In this document: one piece after another, positions 6,124 through 59,016 of the stretch | Numbering within the stretch: the stretch's first letter is position 1 | Layout: each line of letters begins with the position of its first letter | DNA from: Nothopassalora personata | Lineage: Eukaryota; Ascomycota; Dothideomycetes; Mycosphaerellales; Mycosphaerellaceae | Direction: 5' to 3' | NCBI GenBank assembly: GCA_033816765.1 | Contig: CM066289.1 | Location: forward strand, 3,968,001 to 4,032,000 | Length of the DNA: 64,000 nt | Notes under the pieces: generated by a model | Database searches by the model: none | What the model saw: only the letters and a program-made list of their open reading frames with translations | What the model was told of the DNA's origin: nothing | Program-made: the position numbers and the translations under genes

Positions 6124-6156
6124 AGCGGCCGTAATAAGTAAGCACTACGTAATAAT

Positions 6157-7584: not shown

Positions 7585-7782
7585 TGTAAGGGCCGTAAGG
7601 CTATAAGGGGATGTCGTAATGTATAGCACGCCTACGATCTTCTAATCGTAGATAAACTAAAGCTTACTTTCTTCTATCGACGCTATACGCGTCTCCTAGT
7701 ATACGTATACGCGTCACGTGCGGTATACTAAGCCGGGTATAGCCGTATTACATATAAGGGTTAGCTATAGGCTACCCTTATA
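7585..7782 (-). repeat. 3' LTR of chromovirus C
   Basis: 198-bp LTR beginning TGTAAGGGCC, matching 38039-38236 apart from RIP-type differences (the right copy starts TATAAGG). A purine-rich tract on the minus strand (positions 7783-7800) abuts it and is the polypurine tract candidate. Confidence 0.8.
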
Positions 7783-8847: not shown

Positions 8848-8852
8848 GTAGT

Positions 8853-9229
8853 AATGTCTACCAACCACCCTATGTAGGCCTGTCCGAGTTGTGGTGGTAT
8901 GGAGCGGTGCTTGCGTAAGCAGGGGTATTTGCCGGTCCTGGGACCGGGAAATCAGGTCACGTGACGAGCAGCGCAGTAGCCAGATAAAACAAGAGGATTG
9001 GCGGACCCTAAACCCCTATACCCTCTACTCGAGAGGTATGAATTGAATTGTTGCCTTGATGCTACGCTTACAATACTCAACTGCGCAGTATATATCTCAA
9101 TGGCCATACCAGGTCCTGCTGGCTTGCCCAAATGTCCAATCAAACCTAAATGAATTTGGGCAAGTTGGACCCAAGGGACCCCTTCCCAAACCCAAACCCA
9201 AGGTCAACACAACCCATTAGTCGTCAATA
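8853..9229 (-). repeat. Family A LTR, copy 1
   Basis: 377-bp LTR. On the plus strand it runs from AATGTCTACC to GTCGTCAATA. These limits are set by the two edges of the element, by comparison with the internal copies, and by the GTAGT duplication. It includes a TATA-like TATATATC (9089-9096, minus strand sense GATATATA), CACGTG (8958-8963), a palindrome (8927-8952) and an 11-bp hairpin (arms 9123-9133 and 9154-9164). It is the 3' LTR of unit 1. Confidence 0.9.
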
Positions 9230-9702: not shown

Positions 9703-12606
9703 TCAGTTCCACTCATTCTCACACAACTCCTTTGTCCAGACCCACTCGTTGTCGTGGCCAACACCAATCTCACTAGACGCGTCCCCAAGTGGCTGGTTGG
9801 TGAAGTTCCCATGGTAGTTGCGGAAGACGCTCTCATCACGCCCTTCGCTTGTGAAGCACATCTGCTCGAGAGCAGTGACCAAGCTGAGCTGCTTGTCCAT
9901 CAACTTCACAGCTCGGACGCGCCATTCATGCATCTTCTTGTGGAAGAGCTCCGAGTCTGGGCGGACCGCAGCATCAAGCCACCTTCTAGCATCAAGGATG
10001 ACTTCGTTGTCGTTCCAGGACTTCAAACCCGCTAGGGCATCGGACAGGGGGCTGATGCCACTGAGGTGTACGGCCGCAGGGAAAGGATGGCCAGGTACTG
10101 GGCGTCGATACTCAAACCCTGCAGCGCTCTCACTTGGCGTCTTGAAGTCACGATGGAGGTCCATCACCTGGTGCATGCTCCAGCTTCTCTGGAGTTCAAG
10201 ATAGTCATCGTCGCGGATCGCGATAAAGCAAGGGTCAATCTGACGCAGCGTCTTCTTGTGTGCGGCCTGCCTCATTGGAACGCCTGCAGTGGTCACCCGC
10301 ATTTGCCCAGCGCTTAGGTCCTCTCTGAACCAGCTGATGCTGTTCTTGCTCAGGTAATTCTGAACCCCAACCGAGAAGAAACGCTTAAATCGGCCGTCTT
10401 CTATGCAGTCGTTGATCTGGCACCACTGGATGAACTCTGCAGCATTCCCTTGCTTATGAAAACCGTGTAAAAACTCCGGCCCACTGGTGCCCTCTGAGTC
10501 AAGAGAGTACAGCATGTTGAGCCGGTTGCTAGTCCAGTAGTTTTCAATTTCGAGGTTCAAGTCGACCCCAGCATGCTGCACCATGGTGTTCGCATCACCC
10601 CCCTGATGAGCCCTGTCAAAGCTGAAAATCGTAGGCCTGGGGAAGGAGATGAACCGAGTGCAGTGTTGAGGGTGCAGCGCCACTTGCAAGAGCCACAGCC
10701 CGGGGTCTTGTCGCATGATCTGTTGGCTCAGAGAATACCACATGTTCTGGCAGACGCCGCCGTTGCTGACCTTGTTCAACTCTCGCAGGTGCCATCGGTA
10801 CACGTCGAATTCTCGACTCATCATCTCTCTGACTGTTTTAACCCGCGGCGCTAGTTCAGCGTCATTGTACCAGTACAGCATGTTGCCATTGATGTAGGTA
10901 CCGGTGCTATCGAGATCGGCTTGGTCAGCTTCATCAATGCCAAATTTGTCGAGGATCTGATTGTAGTTGGCATGCGTGACGATGCCACTCGTGGTGCCGG
11001 CTTTGCCTCGAACACGGAGGCAGCCAAGCGGGTTGACAGTCTTCTGACCACGCTTGTCAGGGCGAAACCACGACCCATTCTTCACCTTGATAGCTGAAAA
11101 ACTCTTGCCTTCAAAGAGCCAGTCTTGGACCTTGAGCGCGCGCTCACACAGGGTATTGGTGGTGATACCGGGATTCGTGACGAAGTGGAGGGCCTTGTGG
11201 CAGAAATCTCGGACATGCTGATCGCACATCACAGCGCTAACCTTGCCATCCCTCTCAAGAACCTGCGAGACCGCATATTCGAGCATCTCAAGGCCCGCCA
11301 TCCGGTGCTCAGGTAGCCAGTCAATGCCATCCACATCAATCGAGTTCCTGAACTTGATGCCACAGTACCGCTCATTGCAGGTGCAGTTGGCGCGCTTGAT
11401 CCGGAGGGCCTCGTCTTCCTGCAGGATCTGATCCTTGAAGACTGATACATCCCTGATCACAGCCGAAGGTGACATGGTGAGTATCGGATTGCCACCCTCA
11501 GTCAGGGCCGGAGTGGATCGTGGGGTGCCAACCGGTGTACCCAGCGGACTGCCTTCGCGTATGGGTGCGCCGTCCAGCGTTCGGTTAGGCGAGGATTGAG
11601 CAGGCGCAGTCATGCCCTCACCTATGCTCTCGCTCATGCGGAGCTGCTCAAGTCGACTCGACTTGCGACCGCCTCTCGATGGGACTGCAGGCTGGGTAGA
11701 GGCTGGTGGAGTTGGCGTGGTAGTCTTTGCACGTCCTTTGCCTTTGCCACCCGGTGGTGGCTGAGTCTGTTGCTGGCCAGATGGTCCAGGTTGACCTGTG
11801 CTGTCCTCTGGGGACGCGGACTTCTCAGTGATAGTACCCTCCATGAAGTATGGAAGGCCATCCTCATAGACGGCTAGGCGGTGTCTTCTGATGATCTCCC
11901 TGCTCTCAGCCGACTGCGGATCAATGCTGCGTGCTTCAGCCTCCCTGTCGCACCGGGTAAGATCACCAGGCTCCAGAATTCGCTTGCGATCTATGCCCTT
12001 GCGGCCGATCCTCATACGCCAGATCAATGCCCTCTGAATTCTGCCAACAGCCTTGCTGTAGTCTGGGTACTTGTTGATGAAGGCCGTGAACTGGCGGCGC
12101 CCACTGTCAGTGCTGCAAAGCTCGGAGATGACGCGTCGATCAAGAATCTTGTTGTCCATCTGCTGTGGCCAGTGGCGGGTAAGCGTGGCGCGAAGAGTCC
12201 TCTCTCGGTTACGAATCTCTGAACCGGTCTTGCGAATCTTGCCGACGATGGGAAACAAGACATCGAGCTTCCTGTTACCAAGGAATTCATCCTGGTAGGT
12301 CTTGCCCATGCCGCTCTCAACTTCCTCGAAAAACAGGTCAACCCAGACGGAGCAGTCTTCGAACACCTTCTCGAAGCCCTTGCAGAAGTCCTTCAACACC
12401 TCAACCCGCTTCTGAGGACTGAGCTCTCGGAACATGACATTAGCGGCGGACTTCGGCGTGTTCGTGTTGGCAAGGACATGCTTGACGTTGTCCGGCAAGC
12501 GAAGGGACTCGAACAAGGTCTGAGGTGGGCGGGTGAGCCCAGTAACAGTGCTAGTGAGCGCTGTGCTCGAGCCAGCCGGGCGTGACGATGGACCAGCTGA
12601 AGCCAT
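9703..12606 (-). CDS. ORF3, accessory protein of family A (unit 1)
   Basis: 967-codon gene in the same orientation as gag-pol, lying between integrase and the 3' LTR. I do not recognise it. Residues 1-250 are charged and helix-rich. About 255-385 is a low-complexity Pro/Ser/Gly/Gln linker with basic patches (GGKGKGRAK, RGGRKSSR). The C-terminal 580 residues look globular, with a Cys cluster (C408, C410, C415; CTCNERYC), a second Cys/His group (C461, H464, C469, H470) and a conserved-looking FDRAHQGGDANTMVQHAG block (663-680). No signal peptide, membrane segment or RT/IN/protease motif is visible. The ATG lies in a good context (TATCATGGC). It is open in all four copies of the window. A structural, Env-like or DNA-binding role cannot be told apart from sequence alone. 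Confidence 0.85.
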   Translation of the reverse strand: MASAGPSSRPAGSSTALTSTVTGLTRPPQTLFESLRLPDNVKHVLANTNTPKSAANVMFRELSPQKRVEVLKDFCKGFEKVFEDCSVWVDLFFEEVESGMGKTYQDEFLGNRKLDVLFPIVGKIRKTGSEIRNRERTLRATLTRHWPQQMDNKILDRRVISELCSTDSGRRQFTAFINKYPDYSKAVGRIQRALIWRMRIGRKGIDRKRILEPGDLTRCDREAEARSIDPQSAESREIIRRHRLAVYEDGLPYFMEGTITEKSASPEDSTGQPGPSGQQQTQPPPGGKGKGRAKTTTPTPPASTQPAVPSRGGRKSSRLEQLRMSESIGEGMTAPAQSSPNRTLDGAPIREGSPLGTPVGTPRSTPALTEGGNPILTMSPSAVIRDVSVFKDQILQEDEALRIKRANCTCNERYCGIKFRNSIDVDGIDWLPEHRMAGLEMLEYAVSQVLERDGKVSAVMCDQHVRDFCHKALHFVTNPGITTNTLCERALKVQDWLFEGKSFSAIKVKNGSWFRPDKRGQKTVNPLGCLRVRGKAGTTSGIVTHANYNQILDKFGIDEADQADLDSTGTYINGNMLYWYNDAELAPRVKTVREMMSREFDVYRWHLRELNKVSNGGVCQNMWYSLSQQIMRQDPGLWLLQVALHPQHCTRFISFPRPTIFSFDRAHQGGDANTMVQHAGVDLNLEIENYWTSNRLNMLYSLDSEGTSGPEFLHGFHKQGNAAEFIQWCQINDCIEDGRFKRFFSVGVQNYLSKNSISWFREDLSAGQMRVTTAGVPMRQAAHKKTLRQIDPCFIAIRDDDYLELQRSWSMHQVMDLHRDFKTPSESAAGFEYRRPVPGHPFPAAVHLSGISPLSDALAGLKSWNDNEVILDARRWLDAAVRPDSELFHKKMHEWRVRAVKLMDKQLSLVTALEQMCFTSEGRDESVFRNYHGNFTNQPLGDASSEIGVGHDNEWVWTKELCENEWN

Positions 12607-13207
12607 GATAACTAGGATTCACTATCAGTGAGATCGTAAGAGCTGGCTATCTCGTGGTGCCACTCTGGAGTGTTGGTAAGCTTTGAAAGCTTGGTATCGG
12701 GGTGGGCTTTGAAGGTCAAGGTCGTGAAGAGAGAGAGGCCAGAGAACCGTCTGATGTGTGGTGGTAGGTGGATGTGTTGGTGGTTCTGGTGATGGTGCTA
12801 GTGTTTGAAGAAAAAGAGAGGAAGTAGCAGGCAGAGAGCTGCGCTTAAGGATGCCTCTCAGCGTATGTCCCTGTGACCGTTGCAAGGCAGCAGCGCCGAG
12901 ACCGGTCTCATAAGTGGCAAGAGCAGTGCCATTGAGATCACACTGAAGGTCCGATGGCCCTGCATGTGACCGAAAACCAGTGCTGGTGACCACCTAGGTG
13001 AGCATTCGGCAGGGGGCATGCCACGCTGTCACGTGATCCGATTTACCGGTCCCGGGACCGGTAAATGTGACTCTACTAACTGAGGTCCAACCAAGGCAAG
13101 AACACCCCATGAAGTGAAGTCCAGATAACCGAATCGGCTTAACAAACTGAAGGGCATGCGCAACACATGCCTAAGGGAAGTGAACTCCGTACGCCATTGC
13201 CAACTGA
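12607..13207 (-). promoter_or_regulatory. Spacer with probable ORF3 promoter
   Basis: 600-base spacer between pol stop and ORF3 start. Reading toward ORF3 it contains a 26-bp perfect palindrome (13041-13066, core CCGGTCCCGGGACCGG), then CACGTG (13030-13035), then a long CT-rich tract and a CA-rich leader (about 12770-12815) of the kind common just upstream of fungal genes. A stop-to-stop frame at 12625-12993 has no ATG and is not counted as a gene. The palindrome and CACGTG pair is also found in the LTR, in the same sense order. I infer that ORF3 has its own transcript; the sequence alone cannot prove it. Confidence 0.5.
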
Positions 13208-14320
13208 TTAGTTCTCAGCCTCGATCCTGCTGAACTGTGAAATTTCGGCTGCAGAAAGGTCATGAGGCCTGACCCATAGCTTCTTGGATTCCGGTTCAGG
13301 ATACGATCCCCTTTCGTCAATTCCTACAGGTAGCACGTCTTCGTCGGCGATGGGCTCGATCTCGTTCGAATCACTGCTGTCTTCGCTATCAGCGACTTCT
13401 CCCTCCCCCATTACGAGATCGATCCCATCATCCAGGCCTGGTACTCCTATGTTATCCGGGCGAAGCTCTGGAACTAGCTTAAGGTTTTCTCGTGCCTGAA
13501 CTCCCTTCATTGGCGTGCCATCAAGTTCCTCAAGAATATAGGTACCAAACTTCCTGGAGACACTGGACACCCGATATGGACCTTGCCATCGGTAACCGAT
13601 CTTGCGTGAGAAGTCATCCTTATATGGCTTGTCGAACCTCATGACAAGGTCGCCCTTCTGGAAACCAGCAAAGTCAACATTTCGGTGAGAATCGAAGTAG
13701 TCCTTGCTAAGTTCTCTTAGTCGCTTCCTTCGAGCATGCAGCTCTTCCAAACTAAGGTCTCGAGCCTGGAGTTGACGCGCACGTATGGCAAGCAGGTCCT
13801 CAGTCGTTCTCACCGATCCCCATTGATAATTCGCCCACGTCGGGTACTCAACCTCAATTGGCAGAATCGTGCGATGGCCATACAGGACCTGAGCCGGCGT
13901 CATTCCAGTAGTACGACAGGTCGTGGTCCTATCAGCCCATAACACAGCGGGTACCCATTGCTCCCATCCGCGGTATGTGTTCCTTGTAAGCTTTGCTAAC
14001 GCTGCAAGAATCGGACGGTGCCCAACCTCGACCGGAGCATTAGACTGCGGATGGTACGGTGATATTCGGATCCTTCGAACACCAAGTCCTACGAGCAACC
14101 GCTCAACCTCAGCCGCATGAACCGTAGCGTTATCAAGCACAATTTCAGCACAGCAGCCGTGCCTACAGAAGACATCTTCGTATAGAAACTTGGCAACTGT
14201 CTTCGAGCTGGGAGGTGCCCTTGTCACTCTAGCCTCGATCCAGTTGCTGAGTGCTTCGCGCGCAACTAGGAGGTATCCATTTTTGTGCACCTGGACGGGG
14301 TCCAAAATAATGTCTACCAA
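13208..14320 (-). pseudogene. Integrase core/C-terminal remnant (unit 1)
   Basis: Last 364 codons of pol, beginning exactly at the first catalytic Asp of integrase (DPVQVHK) and keeping the second Asp (VLDNATV), the Glu (APVEVGH), the GPY motif (WQGPYRV) and the acidic tail. The N-terminal zinc domain and everything before it are deleted. The frame stays open into LTR-derived codons (VDIIL) but has no ATG. The next LTR, at 14309, supplies the upstream sequence. Probably untranslated. Confidence 0.85.
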
Positions 14321-14685
14321 CCACCCTATGTAGGCCTGTCCGAGTTGTGGTGGTATGGAGCGGTGCTTGCGTAAGCAGGGGTATTTGCCGGTCCTGGGAC
14401 CGGGAAATCAGGTCACGTGACGAGCAGCGCAGTAGCCAGATAAAACAAGAGGATTGGCGGACCCTAAACCCCTATACCCTCTACTCGAGAGGTATGAATT
14501 GAATTGTTGCCTTGATGCTACGCTTACAATACTCAACTGCGCAGTATATATCTCAATGGCCATACCAGGTCCTGCTGGCTTGCCCAAATGTCCAATCAAA
14601 CCTAAATGAATTTGGGCAAGTTGGACCCAAGGGACCCCTTCCCAAACCCAAACCCAAGGTCAACACAACCCATTAGTCGTCAATA
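14309..14685 (-). repeat. Family A LTR, copy 2
   Basis: Same 377-bp LTR, at an offset of exactly 5456 from copy 1. It serves as the 3' end of unit 2 and the 5' end of unit 1. Confidence 0.9.
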
Positions 14686-15158: not shown

Positions 15159-18062
15159 TCAGTTCCACTCATTCTCACACAACTCCTTTGTCCAGACCCA
15201 CTCGTTGTCGTGGCCAACACCAATCTCACTAGACGCGTCCCCAAGTGGCTGGTTGGTGAAGTTCCCATGGTAGTTGCGGAAGACGCTCTCATCACGCCCT
15301 TCGCTTGTGAAGCACATCTGCTCGAGAGCAGTGACCAAGCTGAGCTGCTTGTCCATCAACTTCACAGCTCGGACGCGCCATTCATGCATCTTCTTGTGGA
15401 AGAGCTCCGAGTCTGGGCGGACCGCAGCATCAAGCCACCTTCTAGCATCAAGGATGACTTCGTTGTCGTTCCAGGACTTCAAACCCGCTAGGGCATCGGA
15501 CAGGGGGCTGATGCCACTGAGGTGTACGGCCGCAGGGAAAGGATGGCCAGGTACTGGGCGTCGATACTCAAACCCTGCAGCGCTCTCACTTGGCGTCTTG
15601 AAGTCACGATGGAGGTCCATCACCTGGTGCATGCTCCAGCTTCTCTGGAGTTCAAGATAGTCATCGTCGCGGATCGCGATAAAGCAAGGGTCAATCTGAC
15701 GCAGCGTCTTCTTGTGTGCGGCCTGCCTCATTGGAACGCCTGCAGTGGTCACCCGCATTTGCCCAGCGCTTAGGTCCTCTCTGAACCAGCTGATGCTGTT
15801 CTTGCTCAGGTAATTCTGAACCCCAACCGAGAAGAAACGCTTAAATCGGCCGTCTTCTATGCAGTCGTTGATCTGGCACCACTGGATGAACTCTGCAGCA
15901 TTCCCTTGCTTATGAAAACCGTGTAAAAACTCCGGCCCACTGGTGCCCTCTGAGTCAAGAGAGTACAGCATGTTGAGCCGGTTGCTAGTCCAGTAGTTTT
16001 CAATTTCGAGGTTCAAGTCGACCCCAGCATGCTGCACCATGGTGTTCGCATCACCCCCCTGATGAGCCCTGTCAAAGCTGAAAATCGTAGGCCTGGGGAA
16101 GGAGATGAACCGAGTGCAGTGTTGAGGGTGCAGCGCCACTTGCAAGAGCCACAGCCCGGGGTCTTGTCGCATGATCTGTTGGCTCAGAGAATACCACATG
16201 TTCTGGCAGACGCCGCCGTTGCTGACCTTGTTCAACTCTCGCAGGTGCCATCGGTACACGTCGAATTCTCGACTCATCATCTCTCTGACTGTTTTAACCC
16301 GCGGCGCTAGTTCAGCGTCATTGTACCAGTACAGCATGTTGCCATTGATGTAGGTACCGGTGCTATCGAGATCGGCTTGGTCAGCTTCATCAATGCCAAA
16401 TTTGTCGAGGATCTGATTGTAGTTGGCATGCGTGACGATGCCACTCGTGGTGCCGGCTTTGCCTCGAACACGGAGGCAGCCAAGCGGGTTGACAGTCTTC
16501 TGACCACGCTTGTCAGGGCGAAACCACGACCCATTCTTCACCTTGATAGCTGAAAAACTCTTGCCTTCAAAGAGCCAGTCTTGGACCTTGAGCGCGCGCT
16601 CACACAGGGTATTGGTGGTGATACCGGGATTCGTGACGAAGTGGAGGGCCTTGTGGCAGAAATCTCGGACATGCTGATCGCACATCACAGCGCTAACCTT
16701 GCCATCCCTCTCAAGAACCTGCGAGACCGCATATTCGAGCATCTCAAGGCCCGCCATCCGGTGCTCAGGTAGCCAGTCAATGCCATCCACATCAATCGAG
16801 TTCCTGAACTTGATGCCACAGTACCGCTCATTGCAGGTGCAGTTGGCGCGCTTGATCCGGAGGGCCTCGTCTTCCTGCAGGATCTGATCCTTGAAGACTG
16901 ATACATCCCTGATCACAGCCGAAGGTGACATGGTGAGTATCGGATTGCCACCCTCAGTCAGGGCCGGAGTGGATCGTGGGGTGCCAACCGGTGTACCCAG
17001 CGGACTGCCTTCGCGTATGGGTGCGCCGTCCAGCGTTCGGTTAGGCGAGGATTGAGCAGGCGCAGTCATGCCCTCACCTATGCTCTCGCTCATGCGGAGC
17101 TGCTCAAGTCGACTCGACTTGCGACCGCCTCTCGATGGGACTGCAGGCTGGGTAGAGGCTGGTGGAGTTGGCGTGGTAGTCTTTGCACGTCCTTTGCCTT
17201 TGCCACCCGGTGGTGGCTGAGTCTGTTGCTGGCCAGATGGTCCAGGTTGACCTGTGCTGTCCTCTGGGGACGCGGACTTCTCAGTGATAGTACCCTCCAT
17301 GAAGTATGGAAGGCCATCCTCATAGACGGCTAGGCGGTGTCTTCTGATGATCTCCCTGCTCTCAGCCGACTGCGGATCAATGCTGCGTGCTTCAGCCTCC
17401 CTGTCGCACCGGGTAAGATCACCAGGCTCCAGAATTCGCTTGCGATCTATGCCCTTGCGGCCGATCCTCATACGCCAGATCAATGCCCTCTGAATTCTGC
17501 CAACAGCCTTGCTGTAGTCTGGGTACTTGTTGATGAAGGCCGTGAACTGGCGGCGCCCACTGTCAGTGCTGCAAAGCTCGGAGATGACGCGTCGATCAAG
17601 AATCTTGTTGTCCATCTGCTGTGGCCAGTGGCGGGTAAGCGTGGCGCGAAGAGTCCTCTCTCGGTTACGAATCTCTGAACCGGTCTTGCGAATCTTGCCG
17701 ACGATGGGAAACAAGACATCGAGCTTCCTGTTACCAAGGAATTCATCCTGGTAGGTCTTGCCCATGCCGCTCTCAACTTCCTCGAAAAACAGGTCAACCC
17801 AGACGGAGCAGTCTTCGAACACCTTCTCGAAGCCCTTGCAGAAGTCCTTCAACACCTCAACCCGCTTCTGAGGACTGAGCTCTCGGAACATGACATTAGC
17901 GGCGGACTTCGGCGTGTTCGTGTTGGCAAGGACATGCTTGACGTTGTCCGGCAAGCGAAGGGACTCGAACAAGGTCTGAGGTGGGCGGGTGAGCCCAGTA
18001 ACAGTGCTAGTGAGCGCTGTGCTCGAGCCAGCCGGGCGTGACGATGGACCAGCTGAAGCCAT
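15159..18062 (-). CDS. ORF3, accessory protein of family A (unit 2)
   Basis: Same 967-residue protein as at 9703-12606, with no amino-acid difference. It is intact, with the same start context and the same promoter-like spacer upstream (18063-18663; palindrome 18497-18522). It adds a dose of ORF3 to a unit that cannot itself make gag or reverse transcriptase. Confidence 0.85.
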   Translation of the reverse strand: MASAGPSSRPAGSSTALTSTVTGLTRPPQTLFESLRLPDNVKHVLANTNTPKSAANVMFRELSPQKRVEVLKDFCKGFEKVFEDCSVWVDLFFEEVESGMGKTYQDEFLGNRKLDVLFPIVGKIRKTGSEIRNRERTLRATLTRHWPQQMDNKILDRRVISELCSTDSGRRQFTAFINKYPDYSKAVGRIQRALIWRMRIGRKGIDRKRILEPGDLTRCDREAEARSIDPQSAESREIIRRHRLAVYEDGLPYFMEGTITEKSASPEDSTGQPGPSGQQQTQPPPGGKGKGRAKTTTPTPPASTQPAVPSRGGRKSSRLEQLRMSESIGEGMTAPAQSSPNRTLDGAPIREGSPLGTPVGTPRSTPALTEGGNPILTMSPSAVIRDVSVFKDQILQEDEALRIKRANCTCNERYCGIKFRNSIDVDGIDWLPEHRMAGLEMLEYAVSQVLERDGKVSAVMCDQHVRDFCHKALHFVTNPGITTNTLCERALKVQDWLFEGKSFSAIKVKNGSWFRPDKRGQKTVNPLGCLRVRGKAGTTSGIVTHANYNQILDKFGIDEADQADLDSTGTYINGNMLYWYNDAELAPRVKTVREMMSREFDVYRWHLRELNKVSNGGVCQNMWYSLSQQIMRQDPGLWLLQVALHPQHCTRFISFPRPTIFSFDRAHQGGDANTMVQHAGVDLNLEIENYWTSNRLNMLYSLDSEGTSGPEFLHGFHKQGNAAEFIQWCQINDCIEDGRFKRFFSVGVQNYLSKNSISWFREDLSAGQMRVTTAGVPMRQAAHKKTLRQIDPCFIAIRDDDYLELQRSWSMHQVMDLHRDFKTPSESAAGFEYRRPVPGHPFPAAVHLSGISPLSDALAGLKSWNDNEVILDARRWLDAAVRPDSELFHKKMHEWRVRAVKLMDKQLSLVTALEQMCFTSEGRDESVFRNYHGNFTNQPLGDASSEIGVGHDNEWVWTKELCENEWN

Positions 18063-20614: not shown

Positions 20615-23518
20615 TCAGTTCCACTCATTCTCACACAACTCCTTTGTCCAGACCCACTCGTTGTCGTGGCCAACACCAATCTCACTAGACGCGTCCCCAA
20701 GTGGCTGGTTGGTGAAGTTCCCATGGTAGTTGCGGAAGACGCTCTCATCACGCCCTTCGCTTGTGAAGCACATCTGCTCGAGAGCAGTGACCAAGCTGAG
20801 CTGCTTGTCCATCAACTTCACAGCTCGGACGCGCCATTCATGCATCTTCTTGTGGAAGAGCTCCGAGTCTGGGCGGACCGCAGCATCAAGCCACCTTCTA
20901 GCATCAAGGATGACTTCGTTGTCGTTCCAGGACTTCAAACCCGCTAGGGCATCGGACAGGGGGCTGATGCCACTGAGGTGTACGGCCGCAGGGAAAGGAT
21001 GGCCAGGTACTGGGCGTCGATACTCAAACCCTGCAGCGCTCTCACTTGGCGTCTTGAAGTCACGATGGAGGTCCATCACCTGGTGCATGCTCCAGCTTCT
21101 CTGGAGTTCAAGATAGTCATCGTCGCGGATCGCGATAAAGCAAGGGTCAATCTGACGCAGCGTCTTCTTGTGTGCGGCCTGCCTCATTGGAACGCCTGCA
21201 GTGGTCACCCGCATTTGCCCAGCGCTTAGGTCCTCTCTGAACCAGCTGATGCTGTTCTTGCTCAGGTAATTCTGAACCCCAACCGAGAAGAAACGCTTAA
21301 ATCGGCCGTCTTCTATGCAGTCGTTGATCTGGCACCACTGGATGAACTCTGCAGCATTCCCTTGCTTATGAAAACCGTGTAAAAACTCCGGCCCACTGGT
21401 GCCCTCTGAGTCAAGAGAGTACAGCATGTTGAGCCGGTTGCTAGTCCAGTAGTTTTCAATTTCGAGGTTCAAGTCGACCCCAGCATGCTGCACCATGGTG
21501 TTCGCATCACCCCCCTGATGAGCCCTGTCAAAGCTGAAAATCGTAGGCCTGGGGAAGGAGATGAACCGAGTGCAGTGTTGAGGGTGCAGCGCCACTTGCA
21601 AGAGCCACAGCCCGGGGTCTTGTCGCATGATCTGTTGGCTCAGAGAATACCACATGTTCTGGCAGACGCCGCCGTTGCTGACCTTGTTCAACTCTCGCAG
21701 GTGCCATCGGTACACGTCGAATTCTCGACTCATCATCTCTCTGACTGTTTTAACCCGCGGCGCTAGTTCAGCGTCATTGTACCAGTACAGCATGTTGCCA
21801 TTGATGTAGGTACCGGTGCTATCGAGATCGGCTTGGTCAGCTTCATCAATGCCAAATTTGTCGAGGATCTGATTGTAGTTGGCATGCGTGACGATGCCAC
21901 TCGTGGTGCCGGCTTTGCCTCGAACACGGAGGCAGCCAAGCGGGTTGACAGTCTTCTGACCACGCTTGTCAGGGCGAAACCACGACCCATTCTTCACCTT
22001 GATAGCTGAAAAACTCTTGCCTTCAAAGAGCCAGTCTTGGACCTTGAGCGCGCGCTCACACAGGGTATTGGTGGTGATACCGGGATTCGTGACGAAGTGG
22101 AGGGCCTTGTGGCAGAAATCTCGGACATGCTGATCGCACATCACAGCGCTAACCTTGCCATCCCTCTCAAGAACCTGCGAGACCGCATATTCGAGCATCT
22201 CAAGGCCCGCCATCCGGTGCTCAGGTAGCCAGTCAATGCCATCCACATCAATCGAGTTCCTGAACTTGATGCCACAGTACCGCTCATTGCAGGTGCAGTT
22301 GGCGCGCTTGATCCGGAGGGCCTCGTCTTCCTGCAGGATCTGATCCTTGAAGACTGATACATCCCTGATCACAGCCGAAGGTGACATGGTGAGTATCGGA
22401 TTGCCACCCTCAGTCAGGGCCGGAGTGGATCGTGGGGTGCCAACCGGTGTACCCAGCGGACTGCCTTCGCGTATGGGTGCGCCGTCCAGCGTTCGGTTAG
22501 GCGAGGATTGAGCAGGCGCAGTCATGCCCTCACCTATGCTCTCGCTCATGCGGAGCTGCTCAAGTCGACTCGACTTGCGACCGCCTCTCGATGGGACTGC
22601 AGGCTGGGTAGAGGCTGGTGGAGTTGGCGTGGTAGTCTTTGCACGTCCTTTGCCTTTGCCACCCGGTGGTGGCTGAGTCTGTTGCTGGCCAGATGGTCCA
22701 GGTTGACCTGTGCTGTCCTCTGGGGACGCGGACTTCTCAGTGATAGTACCCTCCATGAAGTATGGAAGGCCATCCTCATAGACGGCTAGGCGGTGTCTTC
22801 TGATGATCTCCCTGCTCTCAGCCGACTGCGGATCAATGCTGCGTGCTTCAGCCTCCCTGTCGCACCGGGTAAGATCACCAGGCTCCAGAATTCGCTTGCG
22901 ATCTATGCCCTTGCGGCCGATCCTCATACGCCAGATCAATGCCCTCTGAATTCTGCCAACAGCCTTGCTGTAGTCTGGGTACTTGTTGATGAAGGCCGTG
23001 AACTGGCGGCGCCCACTGTCAGTGCTGCAAAGCTCGGAGATGACGCGTCGATCAAGAATCTTGTTGTCCATCTGCTGTGGCCAGTGGCGGGTAAGCGTGG
23101 CGCGAAGAGTCCTCTCTCGGTTACGAATCTCTGAACCGGTCTTGCGAATCTTGCCGACGATGGGAAACAAGACATCGAGCTTCCTGTTACCAAGGAATTC
23201 ATCCTGGTAGGTCTTGCCCATGCCGCTCTCAACTTCCTCGAAAAACAGGTCAACCCAGACGGAGCAGTCTTCGAACACCTTCTCGAAGCCCTTGCAGAAG
23301 TCCTTCAACACCTCAACCCGCTTCTGAGGACTGAGCTCTCGGAACATGACATTAGCGGCGGACTTCGGCGTGTTCGTGTTGGCAAGGACATGCTTGACGT
23401 TGTCCGGCAAGCGAAGGGACTCGAACAAGGTCTGAGGTGGGCGGGTGAGCCCAGTAACAGTGCTAGTGAGCGCTGTGCTCGAGCCAGCCGGGCGTGACGA
23501 TGGACCAGCTGAAGCCAT
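20615..23518 (-). CDS. ORF3, accessory protein of family A (unit 3)
   Basis: 967-residue ORF3 of the complete element, identical in protein sequence to units 1 and 2. It follows pol by 600 bases. This is the context in which the gene belongs: gag, pol, then ORF3 on one strand between LTRs. The position matches that of env-like or other accessory ORFs of some plant and animal Gypsy elements. No signal peptide or transmembrane stretch is seen, which argues against an envelope protein. Confidence 0.87.
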   Translation of the reverse strand: MASAGPSSRPAGSSTALTSTVTGLTRPPQTLFESLRLPDNVKHVLANTNTPKSAANVMFRELSPQKRVEVLKDFCKGFEKVFEDCSVWVDLFFEEVESGMGKTYQDEFLGNRKLDVLFPIVGKIRKTGSEIRNRERTLRATLTRHWPQQMDNKILDRRVISELCSTDSGRRQFTAFINKYPDYSKAVGRIQRALIWRMRIGRKGIDRKRILEPGDLTRCDREAEARSIDPQSAESREIIRRHRLAVYEDGLPYFMEGTITEKSASPEDSTGQPGPSGQQQTQPPPGGKGKGRAKTTTPTPPASTQPAVPSRGGRKSSRLEQLRMSESIGEGMTAPAQSSPNRTLDGAPIREGSPLGTPVGTPRSTPALTEGGNPILTMSPSAVIRDVSVFKDQILQEDEALRIKRANCTCNERYCGIKFRNSIDVDGIDWLPEHRMAGLEMLEYAVSQVLERDGKVSAVMCDQHVRDFCHKALHFVTNPGITTNTLCERALKVQDWLFEGKSFSAIKVKNGSWFRPDKRGQKTVNPLGCLRVRGKAGTTSGIVTHANYNQILDKFGIDEADQADLDSTGTYINGNMLYWYNDAELAPRVKTVREMMSREFDVYRWHLRELNKVSNGGVCQNMWYSLSQQIMRQDPGLWLLQVALHPQHCTRFISFPRPTIFSFDRAHQGGDANTMVQHAGVDLNLEIENYWTSNRLNMLYSLDSEGTSGPEFLHGFHKQGNAAEFIQWCQINDCIEDGRFKRFFSVGVQNYLSKNSISWFREDLSAGQMRVTTAGVPMRQAAHKKTLRQIDPCFIAIRDDDYLELQRSWSMHQVMDLHRDFKTPSESAAGFEYRRPVPGHPFPAAVHLSGISPLSDALAGLKSWNDNEVILDARRWLDAAVRPDSELFHKKMHEWRVRAVKLMDKQLSLVTALEQMCFTSEGRDESVFRNYHGNFTNQPLGDASSEIGVGHDNEWVWTKELCENEWN

Positions 23519-24119
23519 GATAACTAGGATTCACTATCAGTGAGATCGTAAGAGCTGGCTATCTCGTGGTGCCACTCTGGAGTGTTGGTAAGCTTTGAAA
23601 GCTTGGTATCGGGGTGGGCTTTGAAGGTCAAGGTCGTGAAGAGAGAGAGGCCAGAGAACCGTCTGATGTGTGGTGGTAGGTGGATGTGTTGGTGGTTCTG
23701 GTGATGGTGCTAGTGTTTGAAGAAAAAGAGAGGAAGTAGCAGGCAGAGAGCTGCGCTTAAGGATGCCTCTCAGCGTATGTCCCTGTGACCGTTGCAAGGC
23801 AGCAGCGCCAAGACCGGTCTCATAAGTGGCAAGAGCAGTGCCATTGAGATCACACTGAAGGTCCGATGGCCCTGCATGTGACCGAAAACCAGTGCTGGTG
23901 ACCACCTAGGTGAGCATTCGGCAGGGGGCATGCCACGCTGTCACGTGATCCGATTTACCGGTCCCGGGACCGGTAAATGTGACTCTACTAACTGAGGTCC
24001 AACCAAGGCAAGAACACCCCATGAAGTGAAGTCCAGATAACCGAATCGGCTTAACAAACTGAAGGGCATGCGCAACACATGCCTAAGGGAAGTGAACTCC
24101 GTACGCCATTGCCAACTGA
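23519..24119 (-). promoter_or_regulatory. Spacer with probable ORF3 promoter (unit 3)
   Basis: Same spacer as 12607-13207, here in the complete element: palindrome 23953-23978 and CACGTG 23942-23947. One base (23810, A instead of G) distinguishes it from unit 1. This was the only clear difference I noticed between units in this region. Confidence 0.5.
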
Positions 24120-27100
24120 TTAGTTCTCAGCCTCGATCCTGCTGAACTGTGAAATTTCGGCTGCAGAAAGGTCATGAGGCCTGACCCATAGCTTCTTGGA
24201 TTCCGGTTCAGGATACGATCCCCTTTCGTCAATTCCTACAGGTAGCACGTCTTCGTCGGCGATGGGCTCGATCTCGTTCGAATCACTGCTGTCTTCGCTA
24301 TCAGCGACTTCTCCCTCCCCCATTACGAGATCGATCCCATCATCCAGGCCTGGTACTCCTATGTTATCCGGGCGAAGCTCTGGAACTAGCTTAAGGTTTT
24401 CTCGTGCCTGAACTCCCTTCATTGGCGTGCCATCAAGTTCCTCAAGAATATAGGTACCAAACTTCCTGGAGACACTGGACACCCGATATGGACCTTGCCA
24501 TCGGTAACCGATCTTGCGTGAGAAGTCATCCTTATATGGCTTGTCGAACCTCATGACAAGGTCGCCCTTCTGGAAACCAGCAAAGTCAACATTTCGGTGA
24601 GAATCGAAGTAGTCCTTGCTAAGTTCTCTTAGTCGCTTCCTTCGAGCATGCAGCTCTTCCAAACTAAGGTCTCGAGCCTGGAGTTGACGCGCACGTATGG
24701 CAAGCAGGTCCTCAGTCGTTCTCACCGATCCCCATTGATAATTCGCCCACGTCGGGTACTCAACCTCAATTGGCAGAATCGTGCGATGGCCATACAGGAC
24801 CTGAGCCGGCGTCATTCCAGTAGTACGACAGGTCGTGGTCCTATCAGCCCATAACACAGCGGGTACCCATTGCTCCCATCCGCGGTATGTGTTCCTTGTA
24901 AGCTTTGCTAACGCTGCAAGAATCGGACGGTGCCCAACCTCGACCGGAGCATTAGACTGCGGATGGTACGGTGATATTCGGATCCTTCGAACACCAAGTC
25001 CTACGAGCAACCGCTCAACCTCAGCCGCATGAACCGTAGCGTTATCAAGCACAATTTCAGCACAGCAGCCGTGCCTACAGAAGACATCTTCGTATAGAAA
25101 CTTGGCAACTGTCTTCGAGCTGGGAGGTGCCCTTGTCACTCTAGCCTCGATCCAGTTGCTGAGTGCTTCGCGCGCAACTAGGAGGTATCCATTTTTGTGC
25201 ACCTGGACGGGGTCCGAGTACCACTTCTCACCAATGACCTGAGGGCTCGATGAGTGAAGCTCACCAGCGCGCTGGTTGCCTTCGCGAAACCTACAAGGAG
25301 CACAACTTCGAACCCACGCAGAGACATCGGCGAAGCACCCGTCCCAGTAATACCGATCGGAAATAAGGTTGTACACGACCTCAGCGCTGCGATGACCGTG
25401 TCTTTCATGGCATTCTATGACGATCTCCTTCTGAGCCTCATCATCGTCAATCACAAGTTGCAACGGTGCTCCTCGGCGCTTCTGGAAGAACAGCAATTGG
25501 TCTCGGACAAAGAAGTTGACGCTCTTCTTCCCCAGCCGCCGGTACTCAGCACGGGTAACACCATCGGGCCGGGTCCTGGTTTCTATAACCTGAGCAAGCT
25601 GCTGAGAGCCCTCAGAATATTGGTCCCCGAGATGTCGTGTTTTCTGGATTTCAACTGGATAGGTGTCGACCGGCTCCGGGTACCTGAACAGCTTATCATC
25701 AATCATCTGGTCGACTTCGTCTTCGTCAGCTTTCCTGGGTTCTTGAGGTGTAGAGGGCCTTCGAGACAGGGCATCTGGGCCAGTGTGTCTAGTCCCCGCA
25801 ACGTGCTTTACCTCGAACGTGAACAACCTGATCCATGCGACCCACCGGGCCATTGCCGAGTTTGGCAGGTCCGAAGCCGGCCGGTTAAGCTGCCATACAA
25901 GTGTCTTGGCATCAACCTCAAGGACAAAATCAACGCCAGTGATATATCTCTGGATCTTCTTAAGCCCCTTAAGGACCCCAAGGCATTCCCGCTTCCCAGC
26001 ATCATATCTGGATTCTGACGCGCTCCAGATTCCACTCTCATACCGCACCGGGTGACGCCGTCGGGTACTGTCCATTGATTCTTGAGAAACGATACATCCC
26101 CATCCAGTGCCGCTAGCATCAACTGAGACAAAGATGGACCCAGCACCAGGTGAGTAGCAGAGGGTAACTAAGGCTGGAGCCTGCACAAGGTACCTAGCAA
26201 CCTCTTCTTTTGAGAACTGCTCATTTTCTGTCCAGGTGAACTCGGCGTCCTTCTTCAGCAGTTTGTACATTGGTCGAGCGATGATAACGAACCAGGGAAT
26301 CCATATCCGGAAGTACACACACAGCCCCACATAGGTGCGGACCTCCTTGATACAGGTAGGCGTAGGCCAATCCAGGATCTTGGCCACAACCTTTGGGTCA
26401 GGATAGCGACCATCCGGGCCAGTAACGTACCCAACAATCTTGAGCTTTTCGTATAACCATTGGGATTTGCCTCCAGCAACTACCGCACCAGCTCTTTCCA
26501 GGTCAGCAAGAACCAGATCCAGGGAAACGATGTGCTCAACGACCCATTTTCTCAACCCAGGCTCTAGTTCGGCATTCCCATAGTCCTCAGTTGGTCCCTT
26601 AATACCGATGTCATCGAGAAACGGCTTCGCTCGATGCGAGATATGATCAAGCAGAATCTTTGTTACCGCACGCACGAACTGAGCAACTGAATTGGTAGCT
26701 CCTTGAGGCAGAGTCGTGTTGCGTACTAGGCCAAGAGGGGTCATGAAGGCTGTTAAGTCCCGGCAGGACTCATCCAAAGTAATCTGATCATAACCTGAAA
26801 ACAGGTCCACAAGTGAAGCGACTCGGCACCCGGCAAAATCCTCTGAGAAGCTATCCGTGTCCGGTGGAATGTTAGCATCGCGCATAGTAACCTCATTCAG
26901 GAGCACAGCTGAGTTGATCAACCGATATGGCACATCGCTTCCAGAGGCATCAACCTTCTTTGCGACCAGGAACCAGCTATTGGAATATGCCCCTTGTGAG
27001 TATTCTAGGATGTTATTCTTGATCCGGGCTCTAATCATGCGCTCAACAATTGCCCTAAGACTTGGGTGCAACCGGATAGGGCGTGCCTGCCATGGCCTAT

Positions 27101-27941
27101 GAGGGACCGTGTTAATCTTCTGAGGTGGCACGACGTCGTGCCTAATTTGCCTCATGTGACTGAAATCCCAAGCGAGGACTGCCTCCCGGTTGTAGAGCAT
27201 CTCATCGAATAAGGCCCTTTCCATTGGCAATAGCTTGATGCCAACCTTGATTGAGGTAAGTCGTTCTGGAGTGATCCGGCTACCTCGCTCAATACTTGAG
27301 AATTTCTTAGTCAAGTACTTCCCATCAAACGGACCTTGTCCTTCAGGCATCTTGGATTCCAGGTACAGTGCCCTGCGCTTCGATTCCATATCTCCCTCAA
27401 CTCGTGATTCTGGGCGTTCGTGAACGCTCGCGTCCACTGGCTTTTTCTTGTCCGCCTTACGCTTGTACATCGTGAAGACCTGCGGCATCCTAATGTTAGC
27501 TATATGTAGGCCTGCTTGTTGCTTCCGTGCCTGAGCATTCAATGCAGATTGTCTCAGGATCTCGGAGGGCCAGTCCCCTTGAACTGAATAAACGTTAGCA
27601 ATAGAATCTCCCTCAAACGCGCCTGTTCCAATTTCTGCAACTCGTTCCTTTGCTACAGCAGTCCTAAGCAATCCCAATAAGTGAGCTGAATGGTTGCTAG
27701 GCGTTAGAGCCTTGCCGGGTTCCTGCAGATGCGTCGTGTCGTGGTCGTATCCGTTTTCCTCACTATAGCTATTTACCGGTCCCGGGACCGGCAAATCAAA
27801 GTCCGAGGTTTCTCCGAGATAGTGCGAGAACCTCACTGATTTTGTCAAACCCGGCTTTAGCAAATCGGTGGGTTGAGCGCCGTAACTCAACCCACCATTC
27901 CATTTCCCGACGCTTTCAATAGTTCCTGAAGGGTTTTGCAC
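24120..27941 (-). CDS. pol: Pol polyprotein: RT, RNase H, integrase
   Basis: Pol of the complete family A element, made from the gag mRNA by -1 frameshifting: the frame overlaps gag by 55 bases and has no usable ATG (first possible start is GTG). The reverse transcriptase (about 285-510) shows LVDLFSGYDQI (377-387), LPQG (411-414) and a variant catalytic box FLDD (441-444). RNase H (603-725) has D608, E652, D677 and D723. Integrase shows a zinc domain (H845, H850, C880, C883), catalytic D910, D966 and E1001, and the GPY motif WQGPYRV (1148-1154), followed by an acidic tail without a chromodomain. It copies the element RNA into DNA and integrates it. The same palindrome seen in LTR and spacer is embedded at codons 49-57. 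Confidence 0.93.
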   Translation of the reverse strand: MQNPSGTIESVGKWNGGLSYGAQPTDLLKPGLTKSVRFSHYLGETSDFDLPVPGPVNSYSEENGYDHDTTHLQEPGKALTPSNHSAHLLGLLRTAVAKERVAEIGTGAFEGDSIANVYSVQGDWPSEILRQSALNAQARKQQAGLHIANIRMPQVFTMYKRKADKKKPVDASVHERPESRVEGDMESKRRALYLESKMPEGQGPFDGKYLTKKFSSIERGSRITPERLTSIKVGIKLLPMERALFDEMLYNREAVLAWDFSHMRQIRHDVVPPQKINTVPHRPWQARPIRLHPSLRAIVERMIRARIKNNILEYSQGAYSNSWFLVAKKVDASGSDVPYRLINSAVLLNEVTMRDANIPPDTDSFSEDFAGCRVASLVDLFSGYDQITLDESCRDLTAFMTPLGLVRNTTLPQGATNSVAQFVRAVTKILLDHISHRAKPFLDDIGIKGPTEDYGNAELEPGLRKWVVEHIVSLDLVLADLERAGAVVAGGKSQWLYEKLKIVGYVTGPDGRYPDPKVVAKILDWPTPTCIKEVRTYVGLCVYFRIWIPWFVIIARPMYKLLKKDAEFTWTENEQFSKEEVARYLVQAPALVTLCYSPGAGSIFVSVDASGTGWGCIVSQESMDSTRRRHPVRYESGIWSASESRYDAGKRECLGVLKGLKKIQRYITGVDFVLEVDAKTLVWQLNRPASDLPNSAMARWVAWIRLFTFEVKHVAGTRHTGPDALSRRPSTPQEPRKADEDEVDQMIDDKLFRYPEPVDTYPVEIQKTRHLGDQYSEGSQQLAQVIETRTRPDGVTRAEYRRLGKKSVNFFVRDQLLFFQKRRGAPLQLVIDDDEAQKEIVIECHERHGHRSAEVVYNLISDRYYWDGCFADVSAWVRSCAPCRFREGNQRAGELHSSSPQVIGEKWYSDPVQVHKNGYLLVAREALSNWIEARVTRAPPSSKTVAKFLYEDVFCRHGCCAEIVLDNATVHAAEVERLLVGLGVRRIRISPYHPQSNAPVEVGHRPILAALAKLTRNTYRGWEQWVPAVLWADRTTTCRTTGMTPAQVLYGHRTILPIEVEYPTWANYQWGSVRTTEDLLAIRARQLQARDLSLEELHARRKRLRELSKDYFDSHRNVDFAGFQKGDLVMRFDKPYKDDFSRKIGYRWQGPYRVSSVSRKFGTYILEELDGTPMKGVQARENLKLVPELRPDNIGVPGLDDGIDLVMGEGEVADSEDSSDSNEIEPIADEDVLPVGIDERGSYPEPESKKLWVRPHDLSAAEISQFSRIEAEN
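27867..27908 (-). promoter_or_regulatory. Programmed -1 frameshift signal (gag-pol)
   Basis: On the coding strand, the slippery heptamer GGGAAAT (27902-27908) is in the correct phase with gag (G GGA AAT). Five spacer bases (GGAAT) follow, then a perfect 11-bp hairpin: GGTGGGTTGAG pairs with CTCAACCCACC around an 8-base loop. The pol frame is exactly -1 relative to gag. This matches the X-XXY-YYZ plus spacer plus stem arrangement known from retroviruses and luteoviruses. The heptamer and the stem survive in the RIPped copy B (39703-39744). Confidence 0.82.
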
Positions 27942-31024: not shown

Positions 31025-31401
31025 AATGTCTACCAACCACCCTATGTAGGCCTGTCCGAGTTGTGGTGGTATGGAGCGGTGCTTGCGTAAGCAGGGGTAT
31101 TTGCCGGTCCTGGGACCGGGAAATCAGGTCACGTGACGAGCAGCGCAGTAGCCAGATAAAACAAGAGGATTGGCGGACCCTAAACCCCTATACCCTCTAA
31201 TCGAGAGGTATGAATTGAATTGTTGCCTTGATGCTACGCTTACAATACTCAACTGCGCAGTATATATCTCAATGGCCATACCAGGTCCTGCTGGCTTGCC
31301 CAAATGTCCAATCAAACCTAAATGAATTTGGGCAAGTTGGACCCAAGGGACCCCTTCCCAAACCCAAACCCAAGGTCAACACAACCCATTAGTCGTCAAT
31401 A
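31025..31401 (-). repeat. Family A LTR, copy 4 (5' LTR and promoter of unit 3)
   Basis: 377-bp 5' LTR that should drive gag-pol. In transcription order it shows the hairpin region, a TATA-like box (31261-31268), CACGTG (31130-31135) and the imperfect palindrome (31099-31124, core GCCGGTCCTGGGACCGG). Its right end is followed by GTAGT. Confidence 0.85.
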
Positions 31402-31406
31402 GTAGT

Positions 31407-58166: not shown

Positions 58167-58543
58167 AATGTCTACCAACCACCCTATGTAGGCCTGTCCG
58201 AGTTGTGGTGGTATGGAGCGGTGCTTGCGTAAGCAGGGGTATTTGCCGGTCCTGGGACCGGGAAATCAGGTCACGTGACGAGCAGCGCAGTAGCCAGATA
58301 AAACAAGAGGATTGGCGGACCCTAAACCCCTATACCCTCTACTCGAGAGGTATGAATTGAATTGTTGCCTTGATGCTACGCTTACAATGCTCAACTGCGC
58401 AATATATATCTCAATAGCCATACCAGGTCCTGCTGGCTTGCCCTTGGGTCCAATCAAACCTAAATGAAAAAGGGGCAAGTTGGACCCAAGGACCCCTTCC
58501 CAAACCCAAACCCAAGGTCAACACAACCCATTAGTCGTCAATA
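58167..58543 (-). repeat. Family A LTR, right-hand copy
   Basis: 377 bp. It has a cluster of changes at 58444-58475 that replaces the 11-bp hairpin of the array LTRs with a different 12-bp inverted repeat (CCTTGGGTCCAA at 58442-58453 and TTGGACCCAAGG at 58480-58491). The TATA-like region, palindrome (58241-58266) and CACGTG (58272-58277) are kept. Confidence 0.88.
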
Positions 58544-59016
58544 TATCCTCCCCCATTACGAACCTGTCCTCAGGTTCCAAAGCAGTAAGCCCGGGCCTAC
58601 CATTCAGCTTGACATACAAGATGTCAGGCAATCCGTGATGGTGACGTCAATAATCCGCGACTCGCGCCCGTCGCACTGCGTTGACGTATGCCACGAGACT
58701 GGCGAGGGGTTGGGCAGCTATGTCAGCATCAATCGAACAGGCCAGATGGTCGAACAATGTAAGCGCCATTCATGAGACAAGTGAGTGTCAGTACCAGTAA
58801 CCTGATAAATCCAAAGACGAGTCCATCGCGTGGCCAGAAAGTGAGTCAAGGGAAGATAAGTGACCATAAGAAACAAGTAAGATCTAAGGACCAGAAGCAC
58901 CCGTACCCGAAGCATCAACCAGAACCAGAACCAGAATCAGAACCAGAAACCCATAGGCTACAGCTGTAGCCGGAAATCAACCAGAAACCAGGAGCCCATA
59001 AACCCGCACCAACCAC

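What the first reader, a model, noticed from the sequence alone, without database searches (positions are those of the whole stretch)
9703..12606. ORF3: a 967-residue accessory gene of unknown family inside a fungal Gypsy element
Four intact copies (9703, 15159, 20615, 59017) lie between integrase and the 3' LTR, on the same strand as gag-pol. The protein has a helical N-terminus, a low-complexity linker and a ~580-residue globular C-terminus with two Cys/His groups and an FDRAHQGGDAN block. It shows no RT, protease, integrase, signal or membrane features. Extra 3' ORFs are known in some plant and animal Gypsy elements, but a 967-residue non-envelope protein in a fungal element is unfamiliar to me. 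It may be a captured host gene, or an anti-silencing or packaging factor; that is inference.
Basis: partly seen in the sequence, partly recalled or inferred. Interest (0 to 1): 0.8.

Follow-up and report, generated by a model that had tools for sequence, protein, structure and literature searches.

The report
Accessory gene in a fungal retrotransposon
A jumping element in a fungal genome carries, besides its usual genes, a third large gene of unknown family with what looks like its own switch, and a DNA palindrome recurs near the start of each of its three genes, so the element may make its own regulator.

Summary
An intact 967-codon ORF lies between integrase and 3' LTR, in sense with gag-pol (window minus strand), in four copies. 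Three form a tandem array, probably grown from one insertion; two of those sit in units lacking gag to mid-integrase. In the genome 34 near-identical full-length copies were scored (19 intact) plus 21 RIP-type mutated ones. Integrase lies upstream of ORF3 in 31 of 32 distinct places examined. Old copies suggest past constraint (indels only 3n, omega about 0.4); recent copies show none, and shortened versions have spread.

No relative was found in Pfam, NCBIfam, PHROGs, PDB sequences, IMG/VR or a 5.8-billion-protein library, where Pol found 170. Folds failed for lack of homologues.

New here: a 16-26 bp palindrome recurs in the LTR, at the start of pol and upstream of ORF3, about 305, 288 and 440 nt before the first ATG of gag, pol and ORF3. 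With a CACGTG box, about 43 bp are shared, inverted, between LTR and ORF3 upstream region, suggesting that ORF3 has its own promoter. Preferred but weakly supported reading: a trans-acting nuclear regulator or anti-silencer. Additional ORFs in Gypsy elements are a known kind.

The parts
31026..31399 (-). 5' LTR of the full-length element (374 bp); 5-bp TACTA flank at 31400-31404
   Evidence: self-comparison, sequence; TACTA recurs at 8849-8853 beyond the last LTR
27887..30799 (-). gag with zinc knuckle and C-terminal aspartic protease, 970 aa
   Evidence: protease and zinc knuckle matches are below Pfam cut-offs
24120..27941 (-). pol: RT, RNase H, integrase, 1273 aa from first GTG; first in-frame ATG at 27488
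   Evidence: D910, D966 and E1001, which I take (from recall) for the integrase triad, are invariant in an alignment with 15 relatives
27776..27791 (.). palindrome CCGGTCCCGGGACCGG inside the start of the pol frame, 288 nt before its first ATG
23953..23978 (.). perfect 26-bp palindrome ATTTACCGGTCCCGGGACCGGTAAAT with adjacent CACGTG, 440 nt before the ORF3 ATG: putative ORF3 promoter module
31104..31119 (.). LTR copy of the palindrome (one central change in the 16-mer), next to CACGTG, 305 nt before the gag ATG
20615..23518 (-). ORF3 of the full-length element, 967 aa
19766..20139 (-). LTR closing the full-length element and opening the first truncated unit
15159..18062 (-). ORF3 in truncated array unit (LTR, C-terminal integrase, ORF3)
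14310..14683 (-). LTR between the two truncated units
9703..12606 (-). ORF3 of the last, truncated array unit (the finding)
13046..13061 (.). palindrome upstream of this ORF3 copy (also at 18502 and 62360 for two other copies)
8854..9227 (-). last LTR of the array; TACTA at 8849-8853
58168..64000 (-). 3' part of a second element (LTR 58168-58541, ORF3 59017-61920, pol running off the window), 99.57% identical
   Evidence: its pol match continues without stops in the genome (C3:4030741-4033884)

Best explanation
ORF3 is a genuine accessory gene of a recently active Ty3/Gypsy element (shown: position and copy number; supported: old constraint). It is probably transcribed from its own internal promoter, built on a palindrome-plus-CACGTG module that also sits in the LTR (inferred from sequence). 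Its product, a basic N-terminal part tethered to a Cys/His-containing C-terminal part, most likely works in trans in the nucleus as a nucleic-acid-binding regulator of the element: it would bind the palindrome near the start of each gene and raise transcription or oppose silencing (inference, not tested). Trans action would also explain why copies with a shortened ORF3 have spread and why extra ORF3 units can pile up in an array without gag-pol. My confidence that ORF3 is a real, once-constrained gene of the element is about 0.85 (lowered from 0.9 on rechecking, because the control classes of the constraint test do not behave cleanly); that it has its own promoter about 0.55; the figure below is for the whole mechanism.
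For: Position: integrase sequence upstream of ORF3 in 31 of 32 distinct places, an LTR hit beyond ORF3 in 30 of 32, one of them only a fragment. Constraint: in 6 of the 21 RIP-type copies listed (the six held as loci) the only indels in 2904 nt are 3, 6, 6, 6, 6 and 9 nt at nt 841-848 in the linker, while the flanking noncoding sequence has, among others, 1-, 2-, 5-, 55- and 64-nt indels; non-RIP-type changes shared by at least four copies are 14 synonymous to 19 nonsynonymous against 23.7% synonymous expected (p 0.013, omega 0.42) and rarer than in noncoding DNA, 33/2901 against 29/1208 (p 0.004). Promoter: about 43 bp with CACGTG and the palindrome are shared between LTR and ORF3 upstream region in inverted orientation, alignment score 59 against a maximum of 39 in 300 shuffles; no ATG in the 302 nt before the ORF3 ATG (102 of 5000 shuffles do as well) and a 27/30 pyrimidine window at -230, not tested against chance. 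Palindrome: 11 sites in the window, none expected; 853 places in the genome against 0 for the reversed control; of the first 50 places listed 36 lie at element spacing from a neighbour, 23 spacings against 0.5 for random positions. Basic N-terminal part and no membrane segment.
Against: Nothing shows that ORF3 binds DNA, RNA or the palindrome; no homologue or usable fold was obtained. The palindrome also folds as an RNA hairpin (z -3.5, -3.1 and, in the LTR, only -1.6), so it may act in RNA, or be a host factor's site. The pol site lacks CACGTG. Recent copies show no selection on ORF3 (18 distinct copies: 11 synonymous to 22 nonsynonymous, 9.2 synonymous expected, p 0.30). In the constraint test changes private to one old copy, which should be neutral if they arose after insertion, show the same synonymous excess (13 of 31 against 22.4% expected, p 0.012), and the integrase control was uninformative (2 synonymous of 7 shared, 32% expected, p 0.72); so the synonymous excess is weaker evidence than its p value. 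The palindrome's survival in RIP-type copies proves nothing, because it holds no CpA or TpG.
Confidence: 0.27

Rival explanations
1. ORF3 is an enzyme or particle factor (captured host gene or shared retroelement module) that helps replication, packaging or nuclear entry, as the GDSL and DEDDy ORF3s of rotifer elements may do; the palindrome is merely promoter furniture for a host transcription factor.
For: The large C-terminal part would suit an enzyme; enzymatic ORF3s are in print in rotifer LTR elements (PMC5408684, abstract and passages). Constraint is compatible.
Against: No match to any enzyme family in Pfam, NCBIfam or PDB sequences; no catalytic motif could be named.
Confidence: 0.3
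2. ORF3 counters a host defence in trans (RNA silencing, DNA methylation or RIP) without binding the palindrome.
For: Older copies carry heavy RIP-type mutation (21 copies with 40 or more TAG codons each), and many Gypsy families with long open frames persist, so selection for a counter-defence is plausible.
Against: None of eight other Gypsy stretches examined in this genome, taken as different families, has an ORF3-like ORF in 3 kb downstream of integrase; no direct evidence.
Confidence: 0.2
3. ORF3 is a passenger that is no longer needed; the recent burst ran on gag-pol alone.
For: Of 34 near-identical full-length copies only 19 keep the whole frame; nine are one base longer by their coordinates (two of these nine were read and both stop after 670 residues), two have a stop at codon 739; recent polymorphism looks neutral.
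Against: Old lineages show frame-preserving indels and an excess of synonymous change, the latter with the caveats given; a useless 2.9-kb gene would be expected to decay; copies with a broken frame can be helped in trans. An assembly error in the longer copies is not excluded.
Confidence: 0.15
4. ORF3 is an envelope-like protein.
For: It has the position of env in sense orientation.
Against: No membrane segment (maximum hydropathy 0.95 over 19 residues), no env-type match.
Confidence: 0.02

Closest known systems
[quoted passage not shown] abstract and passages read)
   Same: [quoted passage not shown] maize Grande gene23 is described there as a nuclear protein with its own promoter, and antisense aORFs as having no clear database relatives
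   Different: Ours is in a fungal element and in sense orientation but not envelope-like; sense plant aORFs are often called env-like, and Grande gene23 is antisense
Boty brtn of Botrytis cinerea (Zhao et al. 2011, seen only as cited in PMC7264820 and PMC8365987)
   Same: Extra gene in a filamentous-fungus Gypsy element
ORF3s of bdelloid rotifer LTR retrotransposons (PMC5408684; abstract and passages)
   Same: Third ORF beyond gag and pol, several of them non-envelope, family-specific
   Different: Those include recognisable domains (GDSL, DEDDy, paramyxovirus-type env); ours matches nothing. They are described as typically expressed from spliced messages; ours appears to have an internal promoter
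VANC anti-silencing proteins of Arabidopsis VANDAL elements (PMC5735166; abstract and section list only; that VANDALs are DNA transposons is recalled)
   Same: Proposed likeness only: element-borne protein plus a repeated short motif in the same element
   Different: Different class of element; our motif is a palindrome near gene starts rather than tandem repeats; no binding or demethylation shown here

Membership tests
Ty3/Gypsy LTR retrotransposon | gag, protease, then RT, RNase H, integrase in that order between LTRs | tested here: met
   (protease and integrase core below Pfam cut-off); 170 Pol relatives of this domain order
Ty3/Gypsy LTR retrotransposon | target-site duplication and polypurine tract | tested here: met
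   TACTA on both sides of the array; AATGGGGGAGGATATA before the 3' LTR
Ty3/Gypsy LTR retrotransposon | tRNA primer-binding site after the 5' LTR | tested here: inconclusive
   TGG starts at the sixth nt after the LTR end; no tRNA was matched
[quoted passage not shown]
   31 of 32 distinct ORF3 places have integrase sequence upstream, 30 of 32 an LTR hit beyond; loci were chosen by ORF3, so element copies without it would not be seen
Additional ORF (aORF) of LTR retrotransposons | conserved as protein | tested here: inconclusive
   old divergence looks constrained, with imperfect controls; recent polymorphism not
Envelope-like protein | transmembrane segment | tested here: not met
VANC-type sequence-specific anti-silencer | short motif repeated within the element that encodes the protein | tested here: met
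   palindrome in LTR, pol and ORF3 upstream region
VANC-type sequence-specific anti-silencer | protein binds the motif and removes silencing marks | not testable with these tools
   needs biochemistry and methylation data
VANC-type sequence-specific anti-silencer | sequence homology to VANC | not tested
   VANC was not fetched
Captured host gene | homologue outside the element in host or other genomes | tested here: inconclusive
   no relative in a library of 5.8 billion proteins by shared 5-residue words; the host-genome search scored 47 of 565 candidates and is crowded by element copies

The most novel reading that the evidence does not exclude
A fungal LTR retrotransposon encodes its own sequence-specific regulator: ORF3 is made from an internal promoter and binds a 26-bp palindrome placed before gag, pol and ORF3, giving an autoregulated, self-protecting element (a retrotransposon counterpart of the VANC system), with trans-acting ORF3 dosage raised further in tandem arrays of ORF3-only units.
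Probability: 0.18. Interest if true: 0.82.

Novelty: new variant of a known kind. Interest (0 to 1): 0.46.

Why it matters
If ORF3 is a self-encoded regulator with sites before each gene, it offers a testable case of a retrotransposon running its own gene control in a host whose old copies are heavily mutated in RIP fashion. Even if not, it is a large sense accessory gene, probably constrained in the past, in a fungal Gypsy element, with a recurring palindrome that makes expression and binding directly testable.

Tried and rejected
Pfam, NCBIfam and PHROGs on ORF3: only chance-level matches (Influenza C NS1 E 0.055; two PHROGs of unknown function E 0.34 and 0.35; none in NCBIfam). PDB sequences: none at E up to 10. 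Protein searches: residues 380-967, 7992 candidates scored, none at E 0.001; residues 645-890, 667 candidates, none at E 10. As a control the same library held 170 Pol relatives (120 listed), so fungal Gypsy proteins are in it; but the search reaches only relatives that share short exact words, so absence is weak evidence. IMG/VR with ORF3 and with a Pol alignment: nothing. GTDB genomes with the Pol alignment: two contigs; one ends inside pol, so its downstream part cannot be judged, the other has no ORF3 match. AlphaFold2 on single sequences, 588 C-terminal and 231 N-terminal residues: mean pLDDT 31.7 and 42.4, so no fold search was made. In the constraint test the integrase rows had an implausible number of private changes (408, misalignment round insertions) and were dropped; the seven shared integrase changes (2 synonymous) are reported. 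L036 was not counted among RIP-type copies (6 TGA, 2 TAA, not TAG-rich). Expression through splicing: no GTRAGT, GTATGT or GTACGT in LTR, leader and first 100 nt of gag (consensus recalled), so not favoured. Envelope: rejected. A genome count of the CACGTG-palindrome module and one of the longer form of an ORF3 base run did not complete, so seven of the nine longer copies rest on coordinates alone. I recalled, from memory and from no call, a resemblance of the C-terminal part to fungal hypothetical proteins; it was not testable and carries no weight here.

Papers: of the ten listings I saw titles and starts of abstracts; none of those named a sense, non-envelope third ORF in a fungal Gypsy element. 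Most subscription papers and Repbase are not held, so this is no claim that it is not in print. PMC8365987 mentions further additional ORFs in Botrytis families (passages) that I could not compare. PMC3248453 (passages) mentions additional domains in complex fungal elements. PMC11952523 (abstract), on a transmembrane accessory protein, does not fit ORF3.
Full report
What is there. Window 8854-31399 (minus strand) looks like one insertion of a Ty3/Gypsy element that has grown into a tandem array. Reading in the element's sense: LTR (31399-31026), gag with zinc knuckle and protease (30799-27887), pol with RT, RNase H and integrase (27941-24120), ORF3 (23518-20615), LTR (20139-19766), then two further units, each made of the C-terminal third of pol, ORF3 and an LTR, ending at 8854. 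Each added unit starts with the LTR and 8 nt after it, joined to the middle of integrase with 2 bp of shared sequence. The same 5 bases, TACTA, flank the whole array, so a single insertion probably expanded in place. A second, separate element occupies 58168-64000 and continues past the window; its pol match has no stops in the genome.

Copies in the genome. The window lies in a 54.5-Mb genome of 40 contigs. DNA search scored 40 of 438 candidates; 34 matches are full-length and 99-100% identical. By protein search (47 of 565 candidates scored) 19 full-length copies have no stop. Of the other 15 among the 34: nine are one base longer by their coordinates, and the two of these that I read stop after 670 residues; two have a stop at codon 739; two on C2 have a TGA and an unmatched stretch; one is one base shorter and matches to residue 854; one on the small contig C23 has stops. 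Another 21 full-span copies carry 40 or more TAG codons each, as expected from repeat-induced point mutation. Since only the best candidates are scored, these are lower bounds. In 38 loci (32 distinct places) integrase sequence lies upstream of ORF3 in 31 of 32 and an LTR hit is found beyond it in 30 of 32, one only a fragment. The loci were chosen by ORF3, so copies of the element without it would not show here.

Is ORF3 constrained? Six RIP-type copies (6 of the 21; those held as loci) were compared one by one with the intact frame. In 2904 nt the only indels are 3, 6, 6, 6, 6 and 9 nt at nt 841-848 in the low-complexity linker; the flanking noncoding DNA of the same copies has, among others, indels of 1, 2, 5, 55 and 64 nt. 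Changes that are not of RIP type and are shared by at least four copies number 33: 14 synonymous, 19 not, against 23.7% synonymous expected (p 0.013; omega 0.42), and they are rarer than in noncoding DNA (33/2901 against 29/1208, p 0.004), where misalignment may add some. Against this: changes private to one old copy, which should be neutral if they came after insertion, show the same excess (13 of 31, 22.4% expected, p 0.012), as do those in two or three copies (6 of 9); and seven shared integrase changes show none (2 synonymous, 32% expected), so there was no working positive control. Among 18 distinct recent copies the 33 variable sites are 11 synonymous and 22 not, with 9.2 synonymous expected (p 0.30): no visible selection. 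The indel pattern is the stronger argument. The reading that fits is a gene kept over the longer term, with a young burst in which broken copies were carried along, in trans or by luck. An assembly error in the one-base-longer copies is not excluded.

What family? None found. Pfam, NCBIfam, PHROGs, PDB sequences, IMG/VR and two searches of a 5.8-billion-protein library gave nothing credible. Pol, in the same library, found 170 relatives, the best 52% identical, some named from Penicillium, Periconia, Podosphaera and Colletotrichum. So the Pol lineage is known and ORF3 is either much faster evolving or peculiar to this branch. Structure prediction without homologues failed. Eight other Gypsy stretches of the same genome, taken as different families by score and frame length and read over 3 kb downstream of integrase, have nothing like ORF3 (best tblastn E 1.8).

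The palindrome. The 16-mer CCGGTCCYRGGACCGG occurs 11 times in the window, none expected: in five LTRs, upstream of the four ORF3 copies, at the start of pol, and in one older fragment. Upstream of ORF3 it is a perfect 26-bp palindrome; in pol it has one change, in the LTR three. It lies 305, 288 and 440 nt before the first ATG of gag, pol and ORF3. Genome-wide there are 853 places against 0 for the reversed control; of the first 50 places listed, 36 stand at an element spacing from a neighbour and 14 do not. Of the six RIP-type loci four keep the perfect 26-bp form upstream of ORF3, but it contains no CpA or TpG and so is immune to RIP; that is no evidence of selection. In LTR and ORF3 upstream region it lies within about 43 bp that also hold CACGTG, in inverted orientation (score 59; 300 shuffles reach at most 39). 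With the ATG-free 302 nt (102 of 5000 shuffles do as well) and a pyrimidine tract before the ORF3 ATG, this points to an internal promoter. An RNA role is not excluded: the sites fold as hairpins with z -3.5 (ORF3), -3.1 (pol) and -1.6 (LTR).

How it may work. Shown: a sense accessory gene that travels with the element, in frame in old copies, shortened in many recent ones, with a promoter-like module shared with the LTR. Inferred: own transcript; nuclear, nucleic-acid-binding product (basic N-terminal part, Cys/His groups, no membrane segment); binding to the palindrome; activation or anti-silencing. Only the first of these inferences has direct sequence support. An enzyme or particle factor, or a counter-defence protein without this site, is together more likely than my single preferred reading; I state it because it is the one that the palindrome layout makes testable.

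Compared with what is known. [quoted passage not shown] In the two passages seen, ICTV's Metaviridae profile names Env downstream of integrase (PMC7879559). The sense orientation, size, lack of envelope features and the recurring palindrome make this a variant of the known kind rather than a new kind. The likeness to VANC (PMC5735166, abstract and section list) is of proposed working, not of family.

Noticed in passing
L053:2359-2907(+), L054:55-660(-), L055:2219-2926(+), L056:2217-2579(+): In 4 of 8 other Gypsy stretches of this genome an ANTISENSE open frame of 120-235 codons lies just downstream of, or across, the end of pol, with a C-x2-C...C...C-x2-C...C cluster spaced like fungal Zn2Cys6 domains (spacing recalled) and, by eye, a charged coiled-coil-like tail; Pfam gives only a sub-cut-off Zn_clus match (E 0.35) for one of five tested. 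The 3' LTRs of these elements were not located.
   Followed up: partly
whole genome G000: The 150 scored integrase zinc-domain matches (of 1471 candidates) show no stops in the rows listed and fall, by score and frame length, into about eight groups with open frames up to about 2079 codons: several Gypsy families look recently active beside RIP-type decay of older copies.
   Followed up: no
8854-20139: Tandem units made of LTR, C-terminal integrase and ORF3, 99.98-99.99% identical: ORF3 units multiplied without gag-pol.
   Followed up: yes
27887-27941 and other copies: Gag and pol are in separate overlapping frames here, but five of the 39 pol matches scored, the right-hand element of the window included, lie in a single open frame of 2230-2232 codons.
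   Followed up: partly
6136-7585, 38235-39894, 46593-48190: Fragments 85-87% identical to gag-pol of the same element, probably older RIP-mutated copies, lie around the array, interrupted by other repeats.
   Followed up: no
36289-36686: Five head-to-tail copies of a 79-bp unit, 100% matching.
   Followed up: no
L047 (NZ_JQJH01000044.1), L048 (NYXK01000080.1): A Gypsy gag-pol contig in a Beijerinckia mobilis assembly (42% identical) and Gypsy remnants in a deltaproteobacterial MAG: probably eukaryotic contamination of bacterial records.
   Followed up: partly
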